Positions 27,213-47,828 of a stretch of DNA of 64,000 nt are shown piece by piece (the stretch's first letter is position 1; each line of letters starts with the position of its first letter). Source of the DNA: Arthrobacter stackebrandtii (GTDB taxonomy: Bacteria > Actinomycetota > Actinomycetes > Actinomycetales > Micrococcaceae). A program made the position numbers and the translations under genes. The DNA lies in NCBI RefSeq assembly GCF_017876675.1, contig NZ_JAGIOI010000001.1, positions 1,612,001-1,676,000 on the forward strand. Direction: 5' to 3'. The notes under the pieces were generated by a model. It ran no database searches. It was not told where the DNA came from and was given only the letters and a program-made list of their open reading frames with translations.

Positions 27213-28471
27213 TCCCCGCAGTGCCCGGCTCGCCACGTTCCACCCCTCTGCGCTGGGGTGTGAACTACACACCGAGTGAAGGTTGGTTCCATTCCTGGCA
27301 GGACTTCGACGTGGACTCCGTCCGCGCGGACTTTGAATCCATCGCGAAGCTGGGGCTGGACCACGTGCGGATCTTCCCGCTGTGGCCGCTGCTGCAGCCG
27401 AACCGATCGCTCATCCGCCCCGCCGGCATTGCCGATGTGGGACGCGTGGTGGACGCCGCTGCCGAATTTGGACTGGACGTCTCGGTGGACGGGCTGCAGG
27501 GGCACCTCTCCAGCTTCGACTTCCTGCCATCGTGGGTGACCAGCTGGCACCGCCGCAACATCTACACCGATCCCGACGTGGTGGCGGCCGAGGCAGATCT
27601 CATCACCGCCCTGGCCAACGAGGTCACCTCGCGCCCCAACGTCCTGGGCATGACGGTGGGCAACGAGACAAACCAGTTCGCGGTGGAACGGCACCCCGAG
27701 CAGCAGCTCACCAGCCCCGCCGAGATGGGCGAATGGTTCAAAACCCTTCTCGCCGCTGCCCGCAAGGTGTGGCCCACGGGCATGCACCAGCACAGCTTTG
27801 ACGACAATGCTTGGTTTGTGGACAGCTGCCCCGTCACACCACGCCACGCCGCAACCCTGGGCGACGCCACCACCGTCCACTCATGGGTGTTCGTGGCCGT
27901 GGCGCACCTCTTCCCGCAGGGCCATCCGGCCCGCACGCTTTTTGCGGACTACCTGGTCCAGCTGGCCGACGCCTACTCCGACGACCCCGCCCGCCCCATC
28001 TGGCTCCAGGAGATCGGCGCACCGTACCCGGCCGTGCCCTTCGACGGCGCCGCGGACTTCCTCGAACAAAGCCTGCGCCCCGTGCTGGACACCCCGAACC
28101 TGTGGGGCGTCACGTGGTGGTGCTCGCACGATGTCAGCCGCAAGCTGGCCGATTTCCCCGAACTGGAATACACGCTTGGCCTGCTTGATTCGGACCGCCG
28201 CCCCAAGCCCGCGGGCTTGCGCCTGGCCGAGCTGATTGCTTCCGAGAGGGCAAACCCCACAACACCTGTCCAGCGGGATACGGCACTCACCTTCGATCCG
28301 GGCGACGAGGACACCGGCGTCGGCCGCTCGGTGGCCGATCCCTCCGGAGAGCTGTTCACCTCGTGGCTGGCGCGTGCCGCCTCGGGCACCAAGCCCGCCC
28401 TGGTGCGTGCTGCAAAGACGTCCGACGCCGACTACCTCGCCGCCCGCGGCATCACGAACGTCATCCCCTGA
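27209..28471 (+). CDS. Glycoside hydrolase, GH5-like (possible beta-mannosidase)
   Basis: A 420-residue TIM-barrel hydrolase of clan GH-A. LRWGVNYTPSEGWFHSW opens the domain; MTVGNETNQF gives the acid/base Glu153 and IWLQEIGAPYP the nucleophile Glu268. The sequence looks most like GH5 subfamily 18, whose characterised members cleave the Man-beta-1,4-GlcNAc linkage of the N-glycan core; I cannot confirm the subfamily without a search. There is no secretion signal. It is coupled by overlap to the GH38 gene, which supports a shared mannose-glycan pathway. Confidence 0.8.
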   Translation: MIPAVPGSPRSTPLRWGVNYTPSEGWFHSWQDFDVDSVRADFESIAKLGLDHVRIFPLWPLLQPNRSLIRPAGIADVGRVVDAAAEFGLDVSVDGLQGHLSSFDFLPSWVTSWHRRNIYTDPDVVAAEADLITALANEVTSRPNVLGMTVGNETNQFAVERHPEQQLTSPAEMGEWFKTLLAAARKVWPTGMHQHSFDDNAWFVDSCPVTPRHAATLGDATTVHSWVFVAVAHLFPQGHPARTLFADYLVQLADAYSDDPARPIWLQEIGAPYPAVPFDGAADFLEQSLRPVLDTPNLWGVTWWCSHDVSRKLADFPELEYTLGLLDSDRRPKPAGLRLAELIASERANPTTPVQRDTALTFDPGDEDTGVGRSVADPSGELFTSWLARAASGTKPALVRAAKTSDADYLAARGITNVIP

Positions 28472-28545
28472 CGCCGCATCAGATAAACCGCACTTTCGCC
28501 CGACGCGGCATCAGATAAACCGCACTTTTCGCCAACGCCGCATCA
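28471..28545. repeat. Two 32-base tandem repeats and a partial third
   Basis: Units 28471-28502 and 28503-28534 share ACGC-GCATCAGATAAACC-GCACTTT with a few differences; 28535-28545 starts a third unit. They begin on the last base of the GH5-like stop codon and end before the ribosome site of the next gene. Confidence 0.7.
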
Positions 28546-35848: not shown

Positions 35849-38800
35849 CTACGAATGGCGACGGCGGCCCGTTGCGCGGTTGCCGGCGATCACCCCGGCA
35901 CCCAGCAGCAGGATCATGATTGCGCCAATGACGGCCGCGTCCATCCCCGTTGCGCCGGTCTTGGCCAAGGTTCCTGCACTCGCCGCGGCAACGGTCGTCG
36001 GAGCGGTGGTTGCCGTTGTCCCGGGAACAGGCTGGGCTGTTGCTGAGGCCGTCGGCGCATCGGTAGGAGCACCGGTGGCACCACCATTGACCACGTCGAT
36101 GGCGGCAGCACCGGAGCAGCCGAGAATAAAGCTGAGGGGATCCATGGCATCGCCGGCTGCGTAGAAGTCAGCGAAGGGTGCAACGCCGCTGGAAGCCAGC
36201 ACGGCGGGGATGTTGGTGCCCGCATAGGCCACGCCACCGCCTGCCAGGGAAGCGCTGCTGAGATCCAACTCGGCCAGGACCACCGATGCATAGTTCACGT
36301 CGCCTCCCGGAGCTGCACCTTCGGTGGCCGATTCAAGCGAACGACTGACAACGTCTGCCTTCAACGAGCCTGCGTTGCCGTCCAGGACCAGCGTGACGTT
36401 GGAAATCGTCACGGACAGTACCGCCCCGGATCCGTAGTCGTGGCCCTGGAAGGAGGCGACGCCGTCGAACCTCACTTCACCGGTGCGCTTGGTTGAATCA
36501 ATCGTGCCAATGCCATTGCTGAAGGTGAAGACCTGATCGGCGGAAACCTCAGCACCGTTGAAGGTGATGTTTCCGTCGGCGATGTTGCCGGTGATGTATT
36601 TGCGGAAGGATTCCTTGACACCCCAGACCAGAGCACCGTCCACAATCGTGCCGTTGGTGCACTTGGCATCCGCAGGAACGTTGGAGACCGGGGGAAGGGT
36701 GTCCACCGGCTTTTCGACCGGCTTTGACGGACCGACCGTGGCTGGCGGAAGCTCGGGAGCAACTTCATCGTCCTTGCCATCTCCGGGATTGACGGCCGCG
36801 GCCGTCACTTCAAGCATCATGGATGCCGTCTGAACACCAGCCGTGACAAGTGCCCGGGCCTGCTGCGGTGCAGTTGCGGTGGCAGTCAGCGTGTAGCTGC
36901 CAGCCTTCTGCGTTGCCGGCACCGGCCATTGGCCTGAGAACGAGCCGTCCTCTCCAACAAGCAAGGAGTTGAGCACGGTTTCTTCGTGGATGTCGAAGCT
37001 CAGCGCATCAAATGACTCACCCGCCTCGTAGAAGGATGCGAACGCGGGCGCACCGGCCTCGGTCAGGACAGTGGACAGGTTCTTGCCCGACAGGCCGTTG
37101 CCGTCTCCGTCCAGGGACGTGGCGCCAATGGCAACCAGCGCGACATCGGTGAAGTTCTCCGAGGCCCCTGTCAGGGACTTGCTGACCACATCGGCAATGA
37201 GCTGCTTGTTCTTGGCATCCACACGAAGATTGGACAGGTTCACCTGAAGTGCACCTTCATGGCCGACCATCGAAAGGGTGCCTGCGTAGCCTGCAACCTT
37301 TCCGTCGGCGTCATAGGAAGCCGCGGGGAAGTGGAACGTGCCGTCGCCGTTTATGGTGGCACCTTCACTTGCCGTGATCGTGCCCTTGGCAATGTTGCCC
37401 TCGAGATAGCCACGGAACGAGGCCCGGACACCCCAATCCAGTCCGCCGGATATCTCCGTCGAAGCAGGTGTTCCCACCTCAATGGCGTTGCCGTCCAAGT
37501 CGAATGCCAGCTGCGAACCGGGAGCGAAGTCGCTGCCTGAAAGGTACAACGTCCCGCCTGCTGCAACGGTGGTGTTCATCGAGAACAGCTTGGGGAGCGT
37601 GAACTCCGGAATTTCGGGTTCGGTGACGACCGGTGCGGACGGGTCGGCCCACGCCAGTTCAACAAAGGCATCCTGGCTGCGGTCGGCGGCATCTTCGTTG
37701 TCGCTTTCCAGCGGTGACACAAACGTCGCGATGTAGAGCGTGCCGTCAACAGCGTTGAAGCCGCCATTCTTGAAGACCGTGGTGACGGAGAAGTCGATCG
37801 GACCGAACGTTCCATCCTTGTTTGTCTTCACGCGGGCAGCGTTCTCGTAGTCCTGGGGCCGGTCAGACCCTCCCGGGCCCTGGGCCACTTCTGCGAGGTA
37901 GATCCAGCGGCTGGGACCGTACCCGCTGCCGGAAACGGTGACCCTGCTGCCGTGTTTCAGGCCGGTTGCAGGCTCAACCGTAAGCGTCGGCTTGTCAGCC
38001 GGAACCTCCGGCTCCACCGGTCCAGGACCACCAACCGTGACAGGAGCGTAAAGCTCCTGCGCAGCATTGACCGTGCCACCGGCAGCATAGGTGTAAACAC
38101 CAAAGTTGCCAGCCTCCGGCCACTCAACCTCAGCACCAGAAACAACCTTCTTCTGCACCGTCAAAACCGTCGAGAACGAACCATCAGCAGAAACCTCAAC
38201 CCACTGACCACGCACAGCACCCTGGAACGCCGCAGGAACAGCATCAAAAGCAGCCTGACTCAACGCCCACTTCTGATCCCCCACCACACGAGCAGAAGCA
38301 GGAGCACTCACAGACGGCTGCCACACATCAGCAAACTTGCCAAAAACAACATACGTACCGGCAGGACTACCCCCAGCAATCGGCGGACGATTACCCTCCG
38401 GAGCAACATTCGCAGCAGGATCAAAACCAGACCCCTTCACCACAATCTGCGTACCCTCAGAAACCGGACCAACCAACGAAGTCACACCATCAGCAGCAAA
38501 AACCTCCACCTCAGGAACAAACACCGGAACCTCCGGCTCCACCGGTCCAGGACCACCAACCGTGACAGGAGCGTAAAGCTCCTGCGCAGCATTGACCGTG
38601 CCACCGGCAGCATAGGTGTAAACACCAAAGTTGCCAGCCTCCGGCCACTCAACCTCAGCACCAGAAACAACCTTCTTCTGCACCGTCAAAACCGTCGAGA
38701 ACGAACCATCAGCAGAAACCTCAACCCACTGACCACGCACAGCACCCTGGAACGCCGCAGGAACAGCATCAAAAGCAGCCTGACTCAACGCCCACTTCTG

Positions 38801-41317
38801 ATCCCCCACCACACGAGCAGAAGCAGGAGCACTCACAGACGGCTGCCACACATCAGCAAACTTGCCAAAAACAACATACGTACCGGCAGGACTACCCCCA
38901 GCAATCGGCGGACGATTACCCTCCGGAGCAACATTCGCAGCAGGATCAAAACCAGACCCCTTCACCACAATCTGCGTACCCTCAGAAACCGGACCAACCA
39001 ACGAAGTCACACCATCAGCAGCAAAAACCTCCACCTCAGGAACAAACACCGGAACCTCCGGCTCCACCGGTCCAGGACCACCAACCGTGACAGGAGCGTA
39101 AAGCTCCTGCGCAGCATTGACCGTGCCACCGGCAGCATAGGTGTAAACACCAAAGTTGCCAGCCTCCGGCCACTCAACCTCAGCACCAGAAACAACCTTC
39201 TTCTGCACCGTCAAAACCGTCGAGAACGAACCATCAGCAGAAACCTCAACCCACTGACCACGCACAGCACCCTGGAACGCCGCAGGAACAGCATCAAAAG
39301 CAGCCTGACTCAACGCCCACTTCTGATCCCCCACCACACGAGCAGAAGCAGGAGCACTCACAGACGGCTGCCACACATCAGCAAACTTGCCAAAAACAAC
39401 ATACGTACCGGCAGGACTACCCCCAGCAATCGGCGGACGATTACCCTCCGGAGCAACATTCGCAGCAGGATCAAAACCAGACCCCTTCACCACAATCTGC
39501 GTACCCTCAGAAACCGGACCAACCAACGAAGTCACACCATCAGCAGCAAAAACCTCCACCTCAGGAACAAACACCGGAACCTCCGGCTCCACCGGTCCAG
39601 GACCACCAACCGTGACAGGAGCGTAAAGCTCCTGCGCAGCATTGACCGTGCCACCGGCAGCATAGGTGTAAACACCAAAGTTGCCAGCCTCCGGCCACTC
39701 AACCTCAGCACCAGAAACAACCTTCTTCTGCACCGTCAAAACCGTCGAGAACGAACCATCAGCAGAAACCTCAACCCACTGACCACGCACAGCACCCTGG
39801 AACGCCGCAGGAACAGCATCAAAAGCAGCCTGACTCAACGCCCACTTCTGATCCCCCACCACACGAGCAGAAGCAGGAGCACTCACAGACGGCTGCCACA
39901 CATCAGCAAACTTGCCAAAAACAACATACGTACCGGCAGGACTACCCCCAGCAATCGGCGGACGATTACCCTCCGGAGCAACATTCGCAGCAGGATCAAA
40001 ACCAGACCCCTTCACCACAATCTGCGTACCCTCAGAAACCGGACCAACCAACGAAGTCACACCATCAGCAGCAAAAACCTCCACCTCAGGAACAAACACC
40101 GGAACCTCCGGCTCCACCGGTCCAGGATCAACAGTCTCCGCGACAGCCACCGTCAAAACAGCTGCGTCGGAGAATACCGTTCCGGCGCCATTGGTGAAGG
40201 CAGCGCGGTACTGTCTGCCGCTGCCACCGACTGTTGCCGTGAAAGTCAGCGTGGGCGCAATGGCACCGGCAATATCGGCCCACTCGCTGCCATCCGCACT
40301 GACCTGCCACTGGACCGACTCGTATCCGGTGCCGGCCGCGGCAAAGGTCGCGTCCTCGCCGTCCTTGACCGATGCGGCAGCGGGTGACGCGGCAACCTCG
40401 GGCTTGGCCGCCACGACAGGTTCTGTCACGGTCAGCAAGGCAGCGTCGGAGGGTGCCTCGCCGCCTGCATTAATGAACACTGCACGGTACTGCTTGCCGT
40501 TGTCGGCAATGAGCGGCGTGAATGTCAGCGTTGCGCCTGAAGCGCCATCAATGGGCGCCCAGTCACTGCCGTTGTAACTTGCTTCCCAACGAACCGATTC
40601 GTAGCCGGTCCCATCCGCCGAGAAAGTCACGGCCTGGCCGACCTCAACGGTTTGGGCCACGGGCGGGGCCGCAACCACGGGGATTGCGACCGGCACATCG
40701 TAGCTTGCCGTGAACGTCACGGGGTCAAAGGCGGAGCCTGCCCCGTACATGCTTGCGAAAGCAGGCGCACCTGACTCCGTCAAAGTTGTGGGCAATGCCG
40801 TTCCGGCAGCCTCACCACCGGAAATCGTTGCTCCCGCCAGCGGTTCGCCCGAGCCCAGGGTGGTGAGATCCACGTCGGCGTAGGTCACGACGCCATCTTC
40901 ACCCATGGACTTGCTCTGAACATCGGCGATCAGGATGCCCCGCGCCAGGTCAAGGCGAATGTCCGCGATGCTGATCGCGAGTGCATCGTCGTGGCCGGAG
41001 AAGCTGACAGAACCGCCGAAGGCCACAGTCTGTGCCGAGGGATCAACGGCGGCAGCCGGGAATCTATAGGTCCCGTCGGCATTCTCGATTGCTCCTCCCC
41101 CAAGAACGGTGGTCCCGTGGGCAATAGGAGACTTCAGGTAGTCGCGGAAGGATTTCCGCACACCCCAGTCGAGGCTGCCGCTGGTGGCCACAAAAGCAGT
41201 GTCCTCCGATGCCGTGGCCGCCGGTGCCGTGACCGCGAGTGCTCCGCCGGTCATGGACAGAGCGGCGATCACGGCCAGTGGGCGGCGCCACCAAGGGCCC
41301 CGTTGCAAGGTCATCAT
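35849..41317 (-). CDS. htaA: HtaA-like cell-wall haem-binding protein with four identical repeats
   Basis: A very long (1,822-residue) secreted protein. In order: signal peptide (to about residue 36), Htaa domain 1 (about 48-195, SGSLDWGVRKSFRDYL), two Ig-like domains (about 200-390, TVEVGQAVTFSADGTGYESV twice), four identical 175-residue repeats (about 397-1105), a neocarzinostatin-like domain (about 1112-1232, VTVSGSGYGPSRWIYLAEV), Htaa domain 2 (about 1289-1445), Htaa domain 3 (about 1556-1735), then LAKTG (about 1784), a hydrophobic helix and an RRRHS tail. LAXTG is the class E sortase signal, so it is probably wall-anchored. HtaA domains capture haem for HmuTUV. ATG 41317 has a GAGGAAAG site; ATG 41368, overlapping the previous stop (ATGA) with GAGGTGG, is an alternative. 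Confidence 0.9.
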   Translation of the reverse strand: MMTLQRGPWWRRPLAVIAALSMTGGALAVTAPAATASEDTAFVATSGSLDWGVRKSFRDYLKSPIAHGTTVLGGGAIENADGTYRFPAAAVDPSAQTVAFGGSVSFSGHDDALAISIADIRLDLARGILIADVQSKSMGEDGVVTYADVDLTTLGSGEPLAGATISGGEAAGTALPTTLTESGAPAFASMYGAGSAFDPVTFTASYDVPVAIPVVAAPPVAQTVEVGQAVTFSADGTGYESVRWEASYNGSDWAPIDGASGATLTFTPLIADNGKQYRAVFINAGGEAPSDAALLTVTEPVVAAKPEVAASPAAASVKDGEDATFAAAGTGYESVQWQVSADGSEWADIAGAIAPTLTFTATVGGSGRQYRAAFTNGAGTVFSDAAVLTVAVAETVDPGPVEPEVPVFVPEVEVFAADGVTSLVGPVSEGTQIVVKGSGFDPAANVAPEGNRPPIAGGSPAGTYVVFGKFADVWQPSVSAPASARVVGDQKWALSQAAFDAVPAAFQGAVRGQWVEVSADGSFSTVLTVQKKVVSGAEVEWPEAGNFGVYTYAAGGTVNAAQELYAPVTVGGPGPVEPEVPVFVPEVEVFAADGVTSLVGPVSEGTQIVVKGSGFDPAANVAPEGNRPPIAGGSPAGTYVVFGKFADVWQPSVSAPASARVVGDQKWALSQAAFDAVPAAFQGAVRGQWVEVSADGSFSTVLTVQKKVVSGAEVEWPEAGNFGVYTYAAGGTVNAAQELYAPVTVGGPGPVEPEVPVFVPEVEVFAADGVTSLVGPVSEGTQIVVKGSGFDPAANVAPEGNRPPIAGGSPAGTYVVFGKFADVWQPSVSAPASARVVGDQKWALSQAAFDAVPAAFQGAVRGQWVEVSADGSFSTVLTVQKKVVSGAEVEWPEAGNFGVYTYAAGGTVNAAQELYAPVTVGGPGPVEPEVPVFVPEVEVFAADGVTSLVGPVSEGTQIVVKGSGFDPAANVAPEGNRPPIAGGSPAGTYVVFGKFADVWQPSVSAPASARVVGDQKWALSQAAFDAVPAAFQGAVRGQWVEVSADGSFSTVLTVQKKVVSGAEVEWPEAGNFGVYTYAAGGTVNAAQELYAPVTVGGPGPVEPEVPADKPTLTVEPATGLKHGSRVTVSGSGYGPSRWIYLAEVAQGPGGSDRPQDYENAARVKTNKDGTFGPIDFSVTTVFKNGGFNAVDGTLYIATFVSPLESDNEDAADRSQDAFVELAWADPSAPVVTEPEIPEFTLPKLFSMNTTVAAGGTLYLSGSDFAPGSQLAFDLDGNAIEVGTPASTEISGGLDWGVRASFRGYLEGNIAKGTITASEGATINGDGTFHFPAASYDADGKVAGYAGTLSMVGHEGALQVNLSNLRVDAKNKQLIADVVSKSLTGASENFTDVALVAIGATSLDGDGNGLSGKNLSTVLTEAGAPAFASFYEAGESFDALSFDIHEETVLNSLLVGEDGSFSGQWPVPATQKAGSYTLTATATAPQQARALVTAGVQTASMMLEVTAAAVNPGDGKDDEVAPELPPATVGPSKPVEKPVDTLPPVSNVPADAKCTNGTIVDGALVWGVKESFRKYITGNIADGNITFNGAEVSADQVFTFSNGIGTIDSTKRTGEVRFDGVASFQGHDYGSGAVLSVTISNVTLVLDGNAGSLKADVVSRSLESATEGAAPGGDVNYASVVLAELDLSSASLAGGGVAYAGTNIPAVLASSGVAPFADFYAAGDAMDPLSFILGCSGAAAIDVVNGGATGAPTDAPTASATAQPVPGTTATTAPTTVAAASAGTLAKTGATGMDAAVIGAIMILLLGAGVIAGNRATGRRRHS
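38001..40127. repeat. Four identical 525-base tandem repeats inside htaA
   Basis: Units begin at 38001, 38526, 39051 and 39576; a 27-base partial copy starts at 40101. The units look identical base for base, and the four encoded 175-residue units are identical. Four 60-base lines inside a unit (38581, 38641, 38881, 38941) have 35, 33, 37 and 32 G or C, against 41 in a flanking line (36001), so the repeats are AT-richer than their host gene. Confidence 0.95.
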
Positions 41318-41364
41318 GGCTTTCCTCTGGTTGGTCGATTGGATTTCACTGCGGGGTGGGCGGC

Positions 41365-42171
41365 TCATTGTCCACCTCGGCGGCGCTTGGTCATCACCAG
41401 CGCACCGGCACCGGCGGCTAGGAGAACGGCACCTGCGGCGACGTAAACGGTGGTTGATGCGCCTGTCTTGGCCAAAGGATCGGTCGACTTGCCGGTGCGT
41501 GTTTCAGCCGCCGTGGCTTCGCCTGGCGCGGCATTGCCCGCGGCACCGCCTGAAGCGTTGCCGGCTTCACCGGCATCTTCGGCGGCGGGTGCTTCAACGG
41601 CACCGAAGCTGATGGGGACCATGACGTCCGCGCTGCGATCCGCGCTTCGGGTGTGGTCCGCACGGGTCACGACGACACAGCCATTCGGAGCCTGCCCCGG
41701 ATCTTGGCAATTGGTCATGCTGTCGGAGGCGACGACGCCCAGGGCGACCGAGAAGGACCCTGTGCCGCCGCTCTGGGTGAATGGCTGCGCCAGGCCCTGC
41801 CCGTAGCTCGGAGGGTTGGAGGAAATCCATACGGAGCTGCCTGAACCGCCGGACATGTCGACCCCGCCGAGGCAGGGCGTTGCCACGGCACCGGGACCGT
41901 TGTTGACGCAGATGCCAACGTAGATTCCCTTGCTCAGGTCGTATCCGGCACCGCTGACCACGACGGAATCCCCGGCAGCATTCAGCCCTTCGGAGCGATC
42001 CACGCTCAACGTTTGGCCCGAGGGTCCCGCGGCCGCCGTTGCCATGGAACTGGCACCGCCAACCAGCACAAGTCCACCCGCCAGAGCGAGGGCGCCGGCA
42101 AGGCGGCCGGCCCTCCGGACGCCGCTTCGGCGTGACACCCTGGCCGCTTCAGGGCGAGCTGTCCCGTTCAT
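41365..42171 (-). CDS. LAKTG-anchored surface protein with neocarzinostatin-like domain
   Basis: A 268-residue secreted protein. A twin-arginine-like basic start and hydrophobic stretch form the signal peptide (to about 48). The mature domain (about 53-195) matches the neocarzinostatin-like beta-sandwich: LNAAGDSVVVSGAGYDLSKG, IYVGICVNNGPG, then two Cys pairs (C-VNNGPGAVATP-C and C-QDPGQAPNG-C) and VTRADHTRSADRSADVMVPI. An Ala/Glu/Gly linker precedes LAKTG at 233, a membrane helix and KRRRGGQ. The same fold is embedded in the HtaA-like protein next door, so it is likely a partner in haem capture; binding is inferred. Its stop overlaps an ATG of htaA. Confidence 0.82.
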   Translation of the reverse strand: MNGTARPEAARVSRRSGVRRAGRLAGALALAGGLVLVGGASSMATAAAGPSGQTLSVDRSEGLNAAGDSVVVSGAGYDLSKGIYVGICVNNGPGAVATPCLGGVDMSGGSGSSVWISSNPPSYGQGLAQPFTQSGGTGSFSVALGVVASDSMTNCQDPGQAPNGCVVVTRADHTRSADRSADVMVPISFGAVEAPAAEDAGEAGNASGGAAGNAAPGEATAAETRTGKSTDPLAKTGASTTVYVAAGAVLLAAGAGALVMTKRRRGGQ

Positions 42172-42350: not shown

Positions 42351-43553
42351 ATGATTCTCGCTTCATCCCGACCTTCCGCCGCGCGCGCCTCACGCCCCCG
42401 CGGGGCACAGCGGACGATTGCATTCTTTGCCTCCGTGCTGGTCGCCGCCGTGACGCTCTCCGCATGCGCACCGCCCACGCCCACGGCCGGGGAAACAGGC
42501 ACGACGGCGGCCGCCTCACCCCAGCAGGGCCCCGTTGCGGCCTGCACCGATGGCACCTCCGGCAAGCTCAAGCTGCCGGCTGACTGGCAGGCCGCGGACC
42601 CGGCGGCGAACCCCGTCGCCAAGGGCACACCCAATCATGGGCCGGTAACGGTCAATACGGACGGCATCACCTTGCCGATCGTGGCTCCGGCGCCCACGCC
42701 GCAACTCCCCACCACTGTTGCTTCATGTGACGGTGAAACCGTGGAGGTGGCTGACGTCAGCCGCATCGTCACGATCGACCTTCACGGAACATTGACAGAA
42801 ATCGTCTACGCCCTGGGACTGGGCGCGAACGTCGTGGGACGCGACCGGGCCGCCGACTTCAAGCAGGCACAGGGCGCCACCGTTGTCACTCCCATGGGAC
42901 ACGACCTCAACGCGGAAGCCATCACGGCCCTCAATCCGAGCGTCGTCCTGACCGACACCACGATTGGACCCCTGGAAGTCCAGGAACAACTGCGTGCGGT
43001 CGGCATCCCCGTCATCTTCTTTGACCCGTCCCGCACCATGGCCGGCATCAGCCACCAGATCACAGCCGTGGCACAGGCAATGGGGGTCCCGGCCGCCGGC
43101 GTTGAGCTGAACGGGATGGTGGGGGCGGACATGGCGGCTGCGCTATCTGCGGTTCCCGCCGACAGCACCCCTGTGCGAATAGCGTTTCTGTATGTTCGGG
43201 GAACTGCCGGCGTCTACTTGATGGCAGGCCCCGGATCGGGAGCCGACGACATTATCAAGTCTGTTGGCGCAACCGATGTGGGAACCGACATCGGCTTGAC
43301 CATGCCGTTCACCCAACTCACCTCCGAAGCCCTGATCAATGCCTCCCCTGACGTGCTGCTGCTCATGACCGGCGGGCTGGAAAGCGTTGGCGGTCCAGAG
43401 GGGCTGGCCAAGATCCAAGGCATTGCGCAGACACCGGCCGGGGCGGACCGGCGCATAATCGACGTGGCCGACGGCACCCTGCTCAGCTTCGGTCCGCGCA
43501 GCGGCCAAATAGTCAAGGCCCTGGCGGAGGCCGTCCATGGAGTGAAGTCATGA
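42351..43553 (+). CDS. hmuT: Haem ABC transporter substrate-binding lipoprotein
   Basis: A 400-residue HmuT-type lipoprotein: signal peptide with LSAC, Cys39 as the lipid anchor; a long Pro/Thr/Gly-rich linker to about residue 115; then a class III binding domain (VSRIVTIDLHGTLTEIVYAL, NAEAITALNPSVVLTDT, IPVIFFDPSRTMAGI, FLYVRGTAGVYLMAGPGSGADDII, INASPDVLLLMTGGLESVGG). It would receive haem from the wall proteins. It is the first gene of hmuTUV, overlaps hmuU by four bases, and reads divergently from the wall proteins. Confidence 0.92.
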   Translation: MILASSRPSAARASRPRGAQRTIAFFASVLVAAVTLSACAPPTPTAGETGTTAAASPQQGPVAACTDGTSGKLKLPADWQAADPAANPVAKGTPNHGPVTVNTDGITLPIVAPAPTPQLPTTVASCDGETVEVADVSRIVTIDLHGTLTEIVYALGLGANVVGRDRAADFKQAQGATVVTPMGHDLNAEAITALNPSVVLTDTTIGPLEVQEQLRAVGIPVIFFDPSRTMAGISHQITAVAQAMGVPAAGVELNGMVGADMAAALSAVPADSTPVRIAFLYVRGTAGVYLMAGPGSGADDIIKSVGATDVGTDIGLTMPFTQLTSEALINASPDVLLLMTGGLESVGGPEGLAKIQGIAQTPAGADRRIIDVADGTLLSFGPRSGQIVKALAEAVHGVKS

Positions 43554-44731
43554 CAGCCGCCCCGGCAACCAAGGATCCGACGCCTGCGGCAGGGTCCCCG
43601 GAATCGGCGGCGCCGGTCCTCGGCGGAACTGGCCGGCGTTCGACGCGCAACAGAAAACACCGCCTCATCGTGGGAATCTTGGCTGCCGCGCTTGCCGTTG
43701 CAGCCGTGGTCGCCGCAGGCAGCGGACAGCTGCACATCACCTCTGCTGAGGTGGTTGGCAGCGTCCTGCACGGCATCAACAACTGGATCCAAAGCTGGCT
43801 TGACTACTTCGGCGGGGGCTTGACCGCGCCGCTGGGCTGGGCGCCGCTTCCCGAGCACCCCCGGGGCTACGAAACCCTCTGGTCGGTGCGCTTTCCGCGC
43901 GTCGTCCTGGCCATGATCGTGGGGGCCGCACTCGCCTGCGCCGGGACGGTCATGCAGGGCGTGTTTGGCAATCCCCTGGCAGAACCCGCCGTCGTCGGCG
44001 TTTCCTCCGGCGCCGCTGTCGGGGCAAGCACCGCGATTGTGACCGGACTGGCCACGCACGGCAACTGGATCGTGGCCGCCTTTGCATTCTTCGGCGGCCT
44101 CATCACCACCCTGCTGGTGTACAGCCTTTCCCGCAGCAAGGGCCGCACGGAAGTTGTCACGTTGGTCTTGACCGGCATCGCCGTCAACGCCTTCACCTTT
44201 GCCCTGATCGCGTTCTACACTTACGTGGCCGATCCCAATGCGCGCGAGCAATTGGTGTTCTGGCAGCTTGGCAGCCTCAACGGAACCGGCTGGCTCAGCG
44301 TCGGTTCGGTGTTGCCGCTGCTTGTCGTCGGCTTGTCCATGGCCTTCCTCGCAGCAGGAAAACTCGACCTGCTGGCCTTGGGCGAACGCTCTGCGCGTCA
44401 CCTGGGTGTCAATGTTGAGCGGCTGCGCATGACCATGATCATCGCGGTGGCGCTCCTGGTCGGCGCCGGCGTTGCCTTTACCGGCATTGTGAGCTTCGTC
44501 GGATTGGTCGTCCCGCACCTCATCCGCATCATTGCCGGCCCCGGACACAAACTGCTCCTGCCGGCCAGCGCCCTGGGCGGCGCACTTCTGGTCCTGCTCG
44601 CCGACCTTGGCGCACGGACAATTGTCCCTTATTCGGACCTGCCCCTGGGCATGCTGACGGCGCTCATCGGCGGACCGTTCTTCTTCTGGCTGCTCCGACG
44701 CACCCGCAATGAGCAAGGAGGCTGGGCGTGA
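43550..44731 (+). CDS. hmuU: Haem ABC transporter permease
   Basis: A 393-residue FecCD/HmuU permease. After a 40-residue cytoplasmic N-terminus there are about ten helices, with RFPRVVLAMIVGAALACAGT, MQGVFGNPLAEPAVVGVSSG, ALGERSARHLGVNVERL and GIVSFVGLVVPHLIRIIAGP. The start overlaps the hmuT stop (ATGA) and the end overlaps the hmuV GTG, so the three are tightly coupled. Confidence 0.93.
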   Translation: MTAAPATKDPTPAAGSPESAAPVLGGTGRRSTRNRKHRLIVGILAAALAVAAVVAAGSGQLHITSAEVVGSVLHGINNWIQSWLDYFGGGLTAPLGWAPLPEHPRGYETLWSVRFPRVVLAMIVGAALACAGTVMQGVFGNPLAEPAVVGVSSGAAVGASTAIVTGLATHGNWIVAAFAFFGGLITTLLVYSLSRSKGRTEVVTLVLTGIAVNAFTFALIAFYTYVADPNAREQLVFWQLGSLNGTGWLSVGSVLPLLVVGLSMAFLAAGKLDLLALGERSARHLGVNVERLRMTMIIAVALLVGAGVAFTGIVSFVGLVVPHLIRIIAGPGHKLLLPASALGGALLVLLADLGARTIVPYSDLPLGMLTALIGGPFFFWLLRRTRNEQGGWA

Positions 44732-45558
44732 GCCTGCTCGACGTATTCCGTTCCCCGCCAACCGAGATTCCGGCAGCACCCGCGCCGGGAGAGCTGGCCA
44801 TTTCCGCCACGGGAGTTACCGTGAAACTGGGCGGCAAGGCTGTTCTGCGGGATGTTGACCTGCCGGTCAAGGCAGGGGAAGTCCTGGCACTGGTCGGCCC
44901 CAATGGTGCCGGAAAATCTACGCTCCTTGCCGCCCTCGCCGGCGACCTGGACCTGGACGGCGGCGAAATCATCCTCGGCGGTGAACCGCTGAACCAGTGG
45001 AAGGCCGAGGAACTCGCGCTGCGCCGGGCAGTCCTGCTGCAGCAGGTCCAGCTCAGCTTCCCCTTCACCGTCCTTGACGTCGTGCAAATGGGTCGCGCCC
45101 CGTGGTCCAACACTGCCGCTTCCGCGTTCGACGACGAGCGAGTGTCCGCGGCCATGCTCGCCACCGATGTCACCGCCTTTTCGGCCCGAAAGTTCTCCTT
45201 TCTGTCGGGCGGGGAAAAGGCGCGGGTCGCCTTGTCCAGGGTACTTGCCCAGGACACTAACATTCTGATGCTGGATGAGCCCACAGCAGCCCTCGACCTG
45301 CGCCACCAGGAACTGGTCCTGCAAGTGGCCAGGGCGCGCGCCGAGGCCGGCCGGGCCGTGGTTGTCGTGCTCCATGACCTCAATCTCGCAGCCGGGTACG
45401 CCGACAAGGTGGCGGTCCTGGAGCAGGGCCGGCTGGCGGCACTGGGCACCCCCAATGAAGTCCTGACAGAGGGGCTTCTCAGCCGTGTTTACCAGTACAA
45501 AATCGACGTCATGGCCCACCCAATGTCCGGCCGCACCGTGGTGCTTCCCCGCCGCTGA
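44728..45558 (+). CDS. hmuV: Haem ABC transporter ATP-binding protein
   Basis: A 276-residue HmuV ATPase: Walker A GPNGAGKST at residues 57-65, signature LSGGEKARVALSRVLAQ, Walker B LMLDEPTAALDLRHQ and the switch VVVVLHDLNLAAGYAD. The haem subfamily is supported by the operon and by VLLQQVQLSFPFTVLDVVQMGRAPW. GTG 44728 overlaps the hmuU stop (GTGA) and has AAGGAGG. Confidence 0.93.
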   Translation: MSLLDVFRSPPTEIPAAPAPGELAISATGVTVKLGGKAVLRDVDLPVKAGEVLALVGPNGAGKSTLLAALAGDLDLDGGEIILGGEPLNQWKAEELALRRAVLLQQVQLSFPFTVLDVVQMGRAPWSNTAASAFDDERVSAAMLATDVTAFSARKFSFLSGGEKARVALSRVLAQDTNILMLDEPTAALDLRHQELVLQVARARAEAGRAVVVVLHDLNLAAGYADKVAVLEQGRLAALGTPNEVLTEGLLSRVYQYKIDVMAHPMSGRTVVLPRR

Positions 45559-47120: not shown

Positions 47121-47828
47121 TCAGGCCGCGGCCTTGCGGGCGGCGTCGAGGTCAACAAATACGGCGCGGTTGAGCTCGAAGGACTCGGCCGCAAAGTTCA
47201 AGATGGCGTCCTTCTGCCCACGGGTGAAGTTGGTGGTGTCGAGCAGGTCCCGGTAGCCGTCCTTGTAGGGCTTGGGCTTGGCGATCTCGTTGAAGGCGTA
47301 GAAGTTCAAGCCTTCATCGGCAATGCCGTAGTGGCGCTGGACCATGCGCGAGATGATCAGGCCGCCGGAGAGGTCGCCCATGTAGCGGACGTAGTGGTGG
47401 GCCAGCAGGAATTCGATGGACTCGCGGCCCATGGTGGACAGCGCGTCGGCGTAGGCCAGGGTGGCGGGCACAATGGCGATCCGGCCGTCGGCCAGCTGTG
47501 CATCCCAGTCGGCGCCGTGGTGGTAGGCCATGTCGGCCTCCAGGGCAGCAACCCGGGCCAGTTTCGGGTCGATGAAGGCGCCCAGCTGCGGGTGGTCAAC
47601 GTGCGCGGCAAGCGCAGTTTCCATGGCCCGGTAAATGACCAGGCTCTGGTCGAGCAGGCTCACCAGGGCTGCAGCGTCCAGGGTTCCGCCCATCAAGTCC
47701 GCCACAAACGTGGAGTCTTCCGCGGCCATGTGGGCTGCAGCTGTGTGGGTCTTGAGCTCCTGCGACAAAGCGGCAGTGGCTCCGGGAAGGGTGGATTCAA
47801 CGGCGGGCGCAGACACGGGCAACTCCAT
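47121..47828 (-). CDS. hmuO: Haem oxygenase (biliverdin-producing)
   Basis: A 235-residue HO-1-type haem oxygenase similar in layout to corynebacterial HmuO. His33 in KTHTAAAHMAAEDSTF is the proximal haem ligand; HHYVRYMGDLSGGLIISRM carries the distal-helix GDLSGG (151-156) with the flexible glycines; YKDGYRDLLD follows. It would open imported haem to biliverdin, CO and iron. No ribosome site precedes ATG 47828, which lies two bases from a DtxR-like box. Its catalysis completes the pathway of HtaA and HmuTUV. Confidence 0.93.
   Translation of the reverse strand: MELPVSAPAVESTLPGATAALSQELKTHTAAAHMAAEDSTFVADLMGGTLDAAALVSLLDQSLVIYRAMETALAAHVDHPQLGAFIDPKLARVAALEADMAYHHGADWDAQLADGRIAIVPATLAYADALSTMGRESIEFLLAHHYVRYMGDLSGGLIISRMVQRHYGIADEGLNFYAFNEIAKPKPYKDGYRDLLDTTNFTRGQKDAILNFAAESFELNRAVFVDLDAARKAAA

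What the first reader, a model, noticed from the sequence alone, without database searches (positions are those of the whole stretch)
38001..40127. Four identical 525-base repeats in a giant haem-binding wall protein
The HtaA-like gene carries four tandem units that look identical at DNA level, plus a 27-base stub of a fifth. Repeats this identical must be recent or kept alike by recombination, so copy number probably varies between strains and could set how far the haem domains stand from the wall. Seen directly; the spacer role is inferred.
Basis: partly seen in the sequence, partly recalled or inferred. Interest (0 to 1): 0.72.

Follow-up and report, generated by a model that had tools for sequence, protein, structure and literature searches.

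The report
Haem protein repeats, strand-biased DNA
An Arthrobacter haem-uptake surface protein carries four letter-identical 525-base repeats whose silent letters are nearly all G or T; in related repeat genes this bias seems to follow the direction of DNA copying, so an unusual mismatch-repair enzyme may be rewriting repeats as they recombine.

Summary
The array is real: period 525, no mismatch, window 37999-40127 (four units plus 29 bases), in an 1839-aa three-HtaA protein beside haem-transport-type and haem-oxygenase genes. Five congeners carry 1, 2, 2, 2 and at least 3 units. Units are 99-100% identical within a gene but 69-81% between species: concerted evolution, as in a Periscope-type stalk.

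Unexpectedly, third positions of the units are 92% G/T ('K'); the rest of the gene 48%; the highest of 2707 own-genome windows is 67%. Across actinobacteria, 14 of 18 near-identical arrays of this unit are K-enriched, 3 C-enriched, 1 neither, against 6 polarised of 73 single-unit ORFs. Where dnaA shares the contig, 8 of 8 K arrays run with the fork and the one C array against it; congeners suggest likewise for 4 K and 2 C arrays.

Best explanation: exchange between units on the lagging-strand template, filtered by NucS, which rejects G.T, G.G and T.T but not A.C, C.C or A.A mismatches, ratchets the leading-sense strand to G/T. NucS is in 29 of 29 genomes tested. nucS-dependence is untested and several arrays do not fit.

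The parts
35849..41368 (-). HtaA-type haem-binding surface protein, 1839 aa
37999..40127 (-). perfect tandem array, period 525, 4 units plus 29 bases
   Evidence: none of 1604 compared bases differs
39574..40098 (-). unit (first complete one in the protein)
39049..39573 (-). unit (second in the protein)
38524..39048 (-). unit (third in the protein)
37999..38523 (-). unit (fourth in the protein)
40099..40127 (-). 29-base partial unit
40709..41182 (-). HtaA domain 1 (N-terminal side of the array)
   Evidence: genome coordinates minus 1612000
37769..37984 (-). Neocarzinostatin-like stretch after the array (weak, just below the Pfam cut-off)
   Evidence: protein residues 1129-1200
36995..37447 (-). 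HtaA domain 2
36128..36640 (-). HtaA domain 3
35852..35968 (-). C-terminal LAKTG + hydrophobic + basic tail, probable sortase signal
   Evidence: read by eye in the translation; no sorting-signal model was hit for this protein
37952..40387 (+). 811-aa antisense open frame: by-product, since the units have almost no A at third positions and so no stops in that antisense frame
41365..42171 (-). upstream gene overlapping by 4 bases: 268-aa sortase-type surface protein with a weak Neocarzinostatin match
42351..43553 (+). ABC substrate-binding protein (Peripla_BP_2); HmuT-like by context
43550..44731 (+). FecCD permease; HmuU-like by context
44728..45558 (+). ABC ATPase; HmuV-like by context
47121..47828 (-). 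haem oxygenase

Best explanation
The array is a row of repeated ~160-residue domains, probably a stalk, in a probably wall-linked haem-uptake protein. Its units keep exchanging sequence (concerted evolution) and gain or lose copies by recombination. I propose that the exchange is biased, as follows. During replication, nascent or displaced single strands of one unit anneal to the lagging-strand template of another unit. NucS, the mismatch endonuclease that actinobacteria use instead of MutS/MutL, rejects G.T, G.G and T.T mismatches in short patches and ignores A.C, C.C and A.A. A change from G/T to A/C on the lagging-template (leading-sense) strand makes a rejected mismatch; the reverse change makes a tolerated one. 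Silent sites of recombining units therefore ratchet to G/T on the coding strand when the gene runs with the fork, and to C (A being disfavoured by the genomes) when it runs against it. Shown: identity, concerted evolution, copy-number differences between species, the polarised composition, its close fit to the repeat, its association with near-identical arrays of this unit. Shown on few cases: the dependence on fork direction. Inferred: lagging-strand annealing and NucS as the filter in these organisms; the spacer role of the stalk.
For: Concerted evolution. Third positions of the unit: A 0, C .08, G .38, T .54 against A .12, C .40, G .31, T .17 expected from the rest of the gene (zK +11.8); own-genome windows max .671 of 2707. 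Near-identical arrays (95% or more): 13 of 16 at zK>3 and 2 of 16 at zK<-3, plus gap-split L035 at +9.5 and L179 at -4.5 to -8.2 in its separate pieces; single-unit ORFs 6 of 73 beyond +-3, one of these six a piece of the L069 array gene. On a FastTree of 101 units the label 'near-identical tandem' needs 12 changes, at least 9 on starred branches; with |zK|>3.5 as polarised, independent pairs agree 4-6 times, disagree 0, tie 3-5, median sign-test p .06. The maximum-likelihood biased segment (letter frequencies taken inside and outside the repeat) is codons 447-1178 for the repeat 455-1170 in W, 708-1006 for 709-1004 in L063. Fork direction. First-position silent change too: Leu TTR 31 of 95 in 14 K arrays against 80 of 884 in the rest of those genes (my sums). 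No genome-wide strand effect: K3 .456 in 130 co-oriented predicted genes.451 in 94 head-on. NucS in 29 of 29 genomes tested. Published: in M. smegmatis oligos annealed to the lagging template give more than 500-fold fewer recombinants if they make G-G, G-T or T-T than the other mismatches, nucS-dependently, with limited resection (PMC11551767 passages; PMC11551744 Results part 1); NucS lowers recombination between non-identical 517-bp copies (PMC5290159 passages).
Against: L040 (97.8% identical) shows no bias. The own genome's other array (396 nt, 98.8%, L133) is only +2.2; further repeats of related genes without clear bias are L046 +1.1, L043 +2.1, L099 +2.6, L106's 741-nt -0.1, and L108's 273-nt -2.7. 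Two 96% arrays among 40 Big_3_5 stretches show none. In eight high-GC arrays two-fold C/T sites barely move (my sum: 15 of 182 T against 60 of 1374). C arrays gain C but not A. Two co-oriented genes with 84-87% copies are K-depleted (L095 -4.0, L092 -3.0). Head-on genes with diverged copies are mixed: G540 -4.2, but G547 +0.9, G606 +0.4, G351 +0.1. L029, L032 and L046 are biased with one unit. Only one C array has a directly placed head-on position. Differences between copies of K arrays show no lack of K/M types (30 of 38). A preprint suggests that NucS action is reduced in M. tuberculosis recombination (PMC13061034 passages).
Confidence: 0.5

Rival explanations
1. Strand-biased mutation without NucS: repeats spend more time single-stranded on the lagging template or are copied by an error-prone polymerase, so fork-dependent mutation alone makes them G/T-rich.
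For: Same dependence on fork direction; in the window's own array most of the shift is C to T.
Against: Deamination gives transitions only, yet in several high-GC arrays four-fold sites shift mainly C to G (L081: C19 G73 T13 against C .43 G .40; L063, L053 similar). The genome shows no general strand effect.
Confidence: 0.2
2. Selection for recombinogenic DNA: G/T-rich strands are preferred by RecA or resemble Chi sites (recalled, not looked up), so G/T-rich units that keep recombining persist.
For: The bias goes with near-identical tandem arrays and with fork direction, as oriented recombination signals would.
Against: The bias covers nearly every silent site, not a motif: 98 of 106 four-fold sites in W are G/T. 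No motif search was done.
Confidence: 0.1
3. Avoidance of secondary structure in ssDNA or RNA of repeats.
For: As DNA, 14 of 18 polarised units fold more weakly (z above 2) than recoded versions. With RNA energies the antisense strand folds more weakly in 16 of 16 K units (z +2.4 to +14.7).
Against: Three strongly K-rich arrays do not fold more weakly as DNA (L081 -0.4, L037 +0.7, L063 +1.4), and codon-usage-preserving shuffles mostly fold alike. The sense (mRNA) strand shows no common trend in the 16 K units (z -2.7 to +6.2). It predicts no fork dependence.
Confidence: 0.05
4. Ordinary Periscope-type array whose codon choice reflects translation or a foreign origin.
For: Composition differs from the rest of the gene.
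Against: First-position Leu shift; borders close to those of the repeat; the bias recurs in several lineages with different GC content. T is high while A is near zero, unlike a whole-genome codon usage (inference).
Confidence: 0.1

Closest known systems
Periscope proteins (SasG, Rib, Sgo_0707; PMC8201768: outline and sections 7 and 21 seen)
   Same: Tandem, highly identical domain repeats of more than 50 residues in surface proteins, with repeat numbers that differ between relatives.
   Different: Haem-binding-type HtaA domains on both sides of the array, a unit without a Pfam match in the window protein, and a strand-polarised silent-site composition that the sections I saw do not mention.
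HtaA/ChtA hemophores (PMC12494546: abstract and outline)
   Same: HtaA (CR) domains, which capture haem in C. diphtheriae; here beside transporter and haem-oxygenase genes.
   Different: Three HtaA domains split by four identical units; haem binding not tested here.
NucS/EndoMS non-canonical mismatch repair (PMC8228993, PMC11551767, PMC5290159: passages; PMC11551744: passages and Results part 1)
   Same: Specific for G-T, G-G, T-T; short-patch in vivo on the lagging template; limits recombination between non-identical copies.
   Different: In what I saw, not described as a force that shapes the codon composition of tandem repeats.
Gene conversion in M. tuberculosis paralogues (preprint PMC13061034: passages)
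   Same: Links gene conversion, NucS and a shifted substitution spectrum; says repair asymmetries could reshape composition of paralogous regions.
   Different: Reports T>C enrichment and proposes reduced NucS action; the passages hold no fork-dependent keto bias.
GC-biased gene conversion (recalled)
   Same: Conversion bias drives the composition of recombining copies.
   Different: Here third-position GC falls in W (.47 against .70-.72) and the bias is keto/amino and strand-specific.

Membership tests
[quoted passage not shown]
   175 residues, 100%; criterion from PMC8201768 section 21
Periscope protein | repeat number varies between close strains | tested here: inconclusive
   varies 1 to 4 between species of the genus; no second strain of the species
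Periscope protein | stalk between an N-terminal functional domain and a wall anchor | tested here: inconclusive
   HtaA domain on the N-terminal side; LAKTG tail seen by eye, no anchor model hit; two more HtaA domains lie on the C-terminal side
Periscope protein | rod-like folded array | not testable with these tools
   structure prediction switched off; no convincing solved relative by sequence
HtaA family PF04213 | HtaA domain above the curated cut-off | tested here: met
   three domains over the cut-off
HtaA family PF04213 | haem binding through the conserved tyrosine | not tested
   needs expression and spectroscopy
NucS-filtered biased conversion (proposed) | NucS present | tested here: met
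   29 of 29 genomes tested, own genome included; the other genomes with the unit were not tested
NucS-filtered biased conversion (proposed) | keto/amino polarisation tied to recombining copies | tested here: met
   exceptions L040 and L133 (arrays without it), L029, L032, L046 (one unit with it)
NucS-filtered biased conversion (proposed) | direction set by replication orientation | tested here: inconclusive
   8 of 8 placed K arrays co-oriented, 1 of 1 placed C array head-on; 4 K and 2 C by congeners only
NucS-filtered biased conversion (proposed) | lost without nucS | not testable with these tools
   no nucS-lacking relative with such an array at hand

The most novel reading that the evidence does not exclude
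A strand-specific form of biased gene conversion exists in actinobacteria: NucS filters heteroduplexes on the lagging template so that recombining repeats are ratcheted to G/T on the leading-sense strand, overriding codon preference. Silent-site keto skew would then be a readable record of past intragenic recombination and of fork direction, and would also shift amino acids (first-position keto .659 in 16 K units against .609 in 82 others).
Probability: 0.45. Interest if true: 0.88.

Novelty: new variant of a known kind. Interest (0 to 1): 0.72.

Why it matters
Length-variable repeat proteins are usually explained by recombination plus selection on length. If mismatch repair biases that recombination by strand, it adds a directional force on bacterial coding DNA, gives a sequence signature of repeat recombination that may remain even where one copy is left, and makes NucS action in natural recombination testable from genomes. 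It also warns that extreme codon usage in repeats, and long antisense open frames, need not mean selection or foreign origin.

Tried and rejected
Antisense ORF 37952-40387: rejected as a gene; it is open because the units have almost no A at third positions. GC-biased gene conversion: rejected for W, GC3 falls. Pure deamination: weakened by C-to-G shifts. Secondary-structure avoidance: weakened. Generality in Big_3_5 domains: from the capped match list of 74 of 238 genomes I picked 40 stretches; they held two arrays of 93% or more (both 96%), neither biased; a weak test, negative as far as it goes. E. coli K-12 yeeJ as a control from a bacterium with MutS (recalled): its repeats are only 65% alike, so no test. 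Genus of G418: 3 genomes, no new near-identical array. Genus of G403: 14 of 44 genomes have the unit; I fetched the two not seen before: one near-identical array (L179, C-rich, frames broken in that assembly) and one 75% array without bias (L178). Within-unit gradient: K arrays weakest in the last fifth of the unit, C arrays weakest in the first (13 of 41 G/T against 14 of 158), but controls also fall (.46 to .33), so I build nothing on it. Literature: searches listed no paper whose title or abstract start reports keto-polarised repeats; I saw listings there, and most subscription papers are not in that library. Rows left out of the counts: L020, L021, L022 and L025, duplicates of L036, L035, L091 and L106. 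Copies were recounted by HMMER in the fetched stretches, since searches scored at most nine candidates in most genomes; short-read assemblies may hide copies. Gene prediction is a simple script.

Full report
1. The observation. The window holds a perfect tandem array of period 525 at 37999-40127: 2129 bases, four letter-identical units and 29 bases more. It lies in frame (175 codons) in a minus-strand gene of 1839 aa with three HtaA domains. The genome is one contig of 4.43 Mb in which the array is the only match. The neighbours are a second sortase-type surface protein, a Peripla_BP_2/FecCD/ABC_tran transporter set and a haem oxygenase, so this is probably a haem-uptake locus. Two congeners are named Arthrobacter in their records (contigs of the same lengths).

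2. Relatives. Of 23 genus genomes, 6 (own included) have the unit. Orthologues carry 1 (L032), 2 (L033, L034, L036) and at least 3 units (L035, with an assembly gap inside the array), against 4 in the window. Within a gene the units are 99-100% identical in DNA, between species 69-81%. That is concerted evolution. A profile of ten units found the unit in 55 of 396 order genomes and 44 of 394 class genomes (the sets overlap); I fetched one stretch from each of these genomes other than the own. The window unit on its own hits no Pfam family and no solved structure convincingly.

3. The unexpected part. Third positions of the window unit are A 0, C .08, G .38, T .54, where the codon usage of the rest of the gene predicts .12.40.31.17. 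In 304 kb of the same genome (226 predicted genes, the array gene left out of the counts), the highest window of 158 codons has K3 = .671 and none has C3 at or below .10, among 2707 windows. All six genus orthologues share the bias, the single-unit one and L034 less strongly.

4. It goes with near-identical arrays. One search classed 119 ORFs: 16 with copies at least 95% identical (13 with zK>3, 2 with zK<-3, 1 neither), 30 with more diverged copies (3 and 5), 73 with one unit (3 and 3). Gap-split L035, counted as diverged there, is identical over 853 bases and +9.5. L179 adds an array with copies identical over at least 300 bases; its separate pieces give zK -4.5 to -8.2, two of them against few flanking codons. 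Together that is 18 near-identical arrays: 14 K, 3 C, 1 neither. A second repeat type of about 370 bases in related genes is K-rich too: L056 +3.8, L060 +4.7, L039 +4.1. Other repeats are not clearly so: L046 +1.1, L106's 741-nt -0.1, L133 +2.2, L043 +2.1, L099 +2.6, L108's 273-nt -2.7. On a FastTree of 101 units the array label needs 12 changes, at least 9 on starred branches; with |zK|>3.5 as polarised, independent pairs agree 4-6 times, disagree 0, tie 3-5, median sign-test p .06.

5. It fits the repeat. A maximum-likelihood search for the biased segment, with letter frequencies taken inside and outside the repeat, returns codons 447-1178 for the repeat 455-1170 in the window's ORF, 708-1006 for 709-1004 in L063 and 372-728 for 373-716 in L081. 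L033, L034, L036 and L023 begin within three codons of the repeat and end 13-32 codons early; L037, L106, L108, L053, L049, L047 and L069 are off by up to about 60 codons at one end or the other, and L038 (91.6%) fits badly. In the window K3 is .42 in the 40 codons before.98 in the first 40.72 in the last 40 and .41 in the 40 after.

6. It is not a wobble effect. Leucine uses TTR in 31 of 95 codons in 14 K arrays against 80 of 884 in the rest of those genes (my sums over the rows), a first-position C-to-T shift. In high-GC genomes the four-fold sites go from C mainly to G. Two-fold C/T sites there hardly move and C arrays do not gain A; both are weak points, perhaps held by codon or GC preference (inference).

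7. It seems to follow the fork. Using dnaA as a proxy for the origin (gene coordinates), K arrays W, G012, G013, G477, G488, G636, G951 and G764 all point away from dnaA (8 of 8 placed); the C array in G418 points towards it (1 of 1 placed). By congeners, L033 and L036 (G000, G002, G012, G013 all co-oriented), L063 (G515, G642) and L053 (G488) would be co-oriented, and the C arrays L069 and L179 head-on (G351, G509, G547, G606, G629, 5 of 5). L023 and L031 (K) and L040 (no bias) are unplaced. Counting all 15 as independent, the chance of this split is 1 in 455; with direct cases alone, 1 in 9. Related arrays are not independent, so the fork rule is likely, not proven. Against it: co-oriented L095 and L092, with copies at 84-87%, are K-depleted; head-on G547, G606 and G351, with copies at 59-72%, are neutral, while head-on G540 is -4.2.

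8. Mechanism. The needed filter has been measured in M. [quoted passage not shown] PMC11551744 agrees for G-T and G-G. The review PMC8228993 (passages) gives the same specificity. On the lagging template (leading-sense strand) a K-to-A/C conversion passes through a K.K mismatch and is rejected; the reverse passes through A.C, C.C or A.A and survives. Repeats that exchange strands there must drift to K on that strand (my deduction). Treating conversion as a biased walk among copies, the observed odds ratios imply a modest bias per step: r 2.3 in the four-copy window array, 1.8 to 10.9 in two-copy K arrays (a back-of-envelope model of mine). NucS is in 29 of 29 genomes tested, a part of those with the unit.

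9. Alternatives. The genome has no general strand skew at third positions, so ordinary replication asymmetry looks too weak. Weaker DNA folding (14 of 18 polarised units at z above 2) looks like a by-product: three strong K arrays lack it. With RNA energies the antisense strand folds more weakly in 16 of 16 K units, the sense strand shows no common trend. RecA/Chi preference and error-prone copying of arrays remain open.

10. Verdict. Observation confirmed; a Periscope-like, concerted array in a haem-type protein, copy number differing between species. The lasting interest lies in the keto polarisation and its apparent fork dependence, which I did not see reported in the listings of searches.

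Noticed in passing
37952-40387 (+): 811-aa antisense open frame over the array, explained by the near absence of A at third positions in the units.
   Followed up: yes
L133 9631-16119 (own genome C1 about 2,989,631-2,996,119, +): A second large surface protein (SdrD_B-like by eye) of the same genome with 396-base repeats 98.8% identical; weak keto excess (+2.2).
   Followed up: partly
28470-28545: 2.4 copies of a 32-base tandem repeat found by Tandem Repeats Finder.
   Followed up: no
L035 (Arthrobacter sp. GMC3), inside the array: The assembly breaks with a run of N inside the array, so the copy number there is a lower bound.
   Followed up: yes
L179 (G1010): Three C-rich units with period 452 (not a multiple of three) and broken frames, probably assembly errors.
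   Followed up: partly
units of K and C arrays: The bias is weakest in the last fifth of K units and in the first fifth of C units, i.e. at the end copied last in both if the fork directions hold; controls also show a slope.
   Followed up: partly
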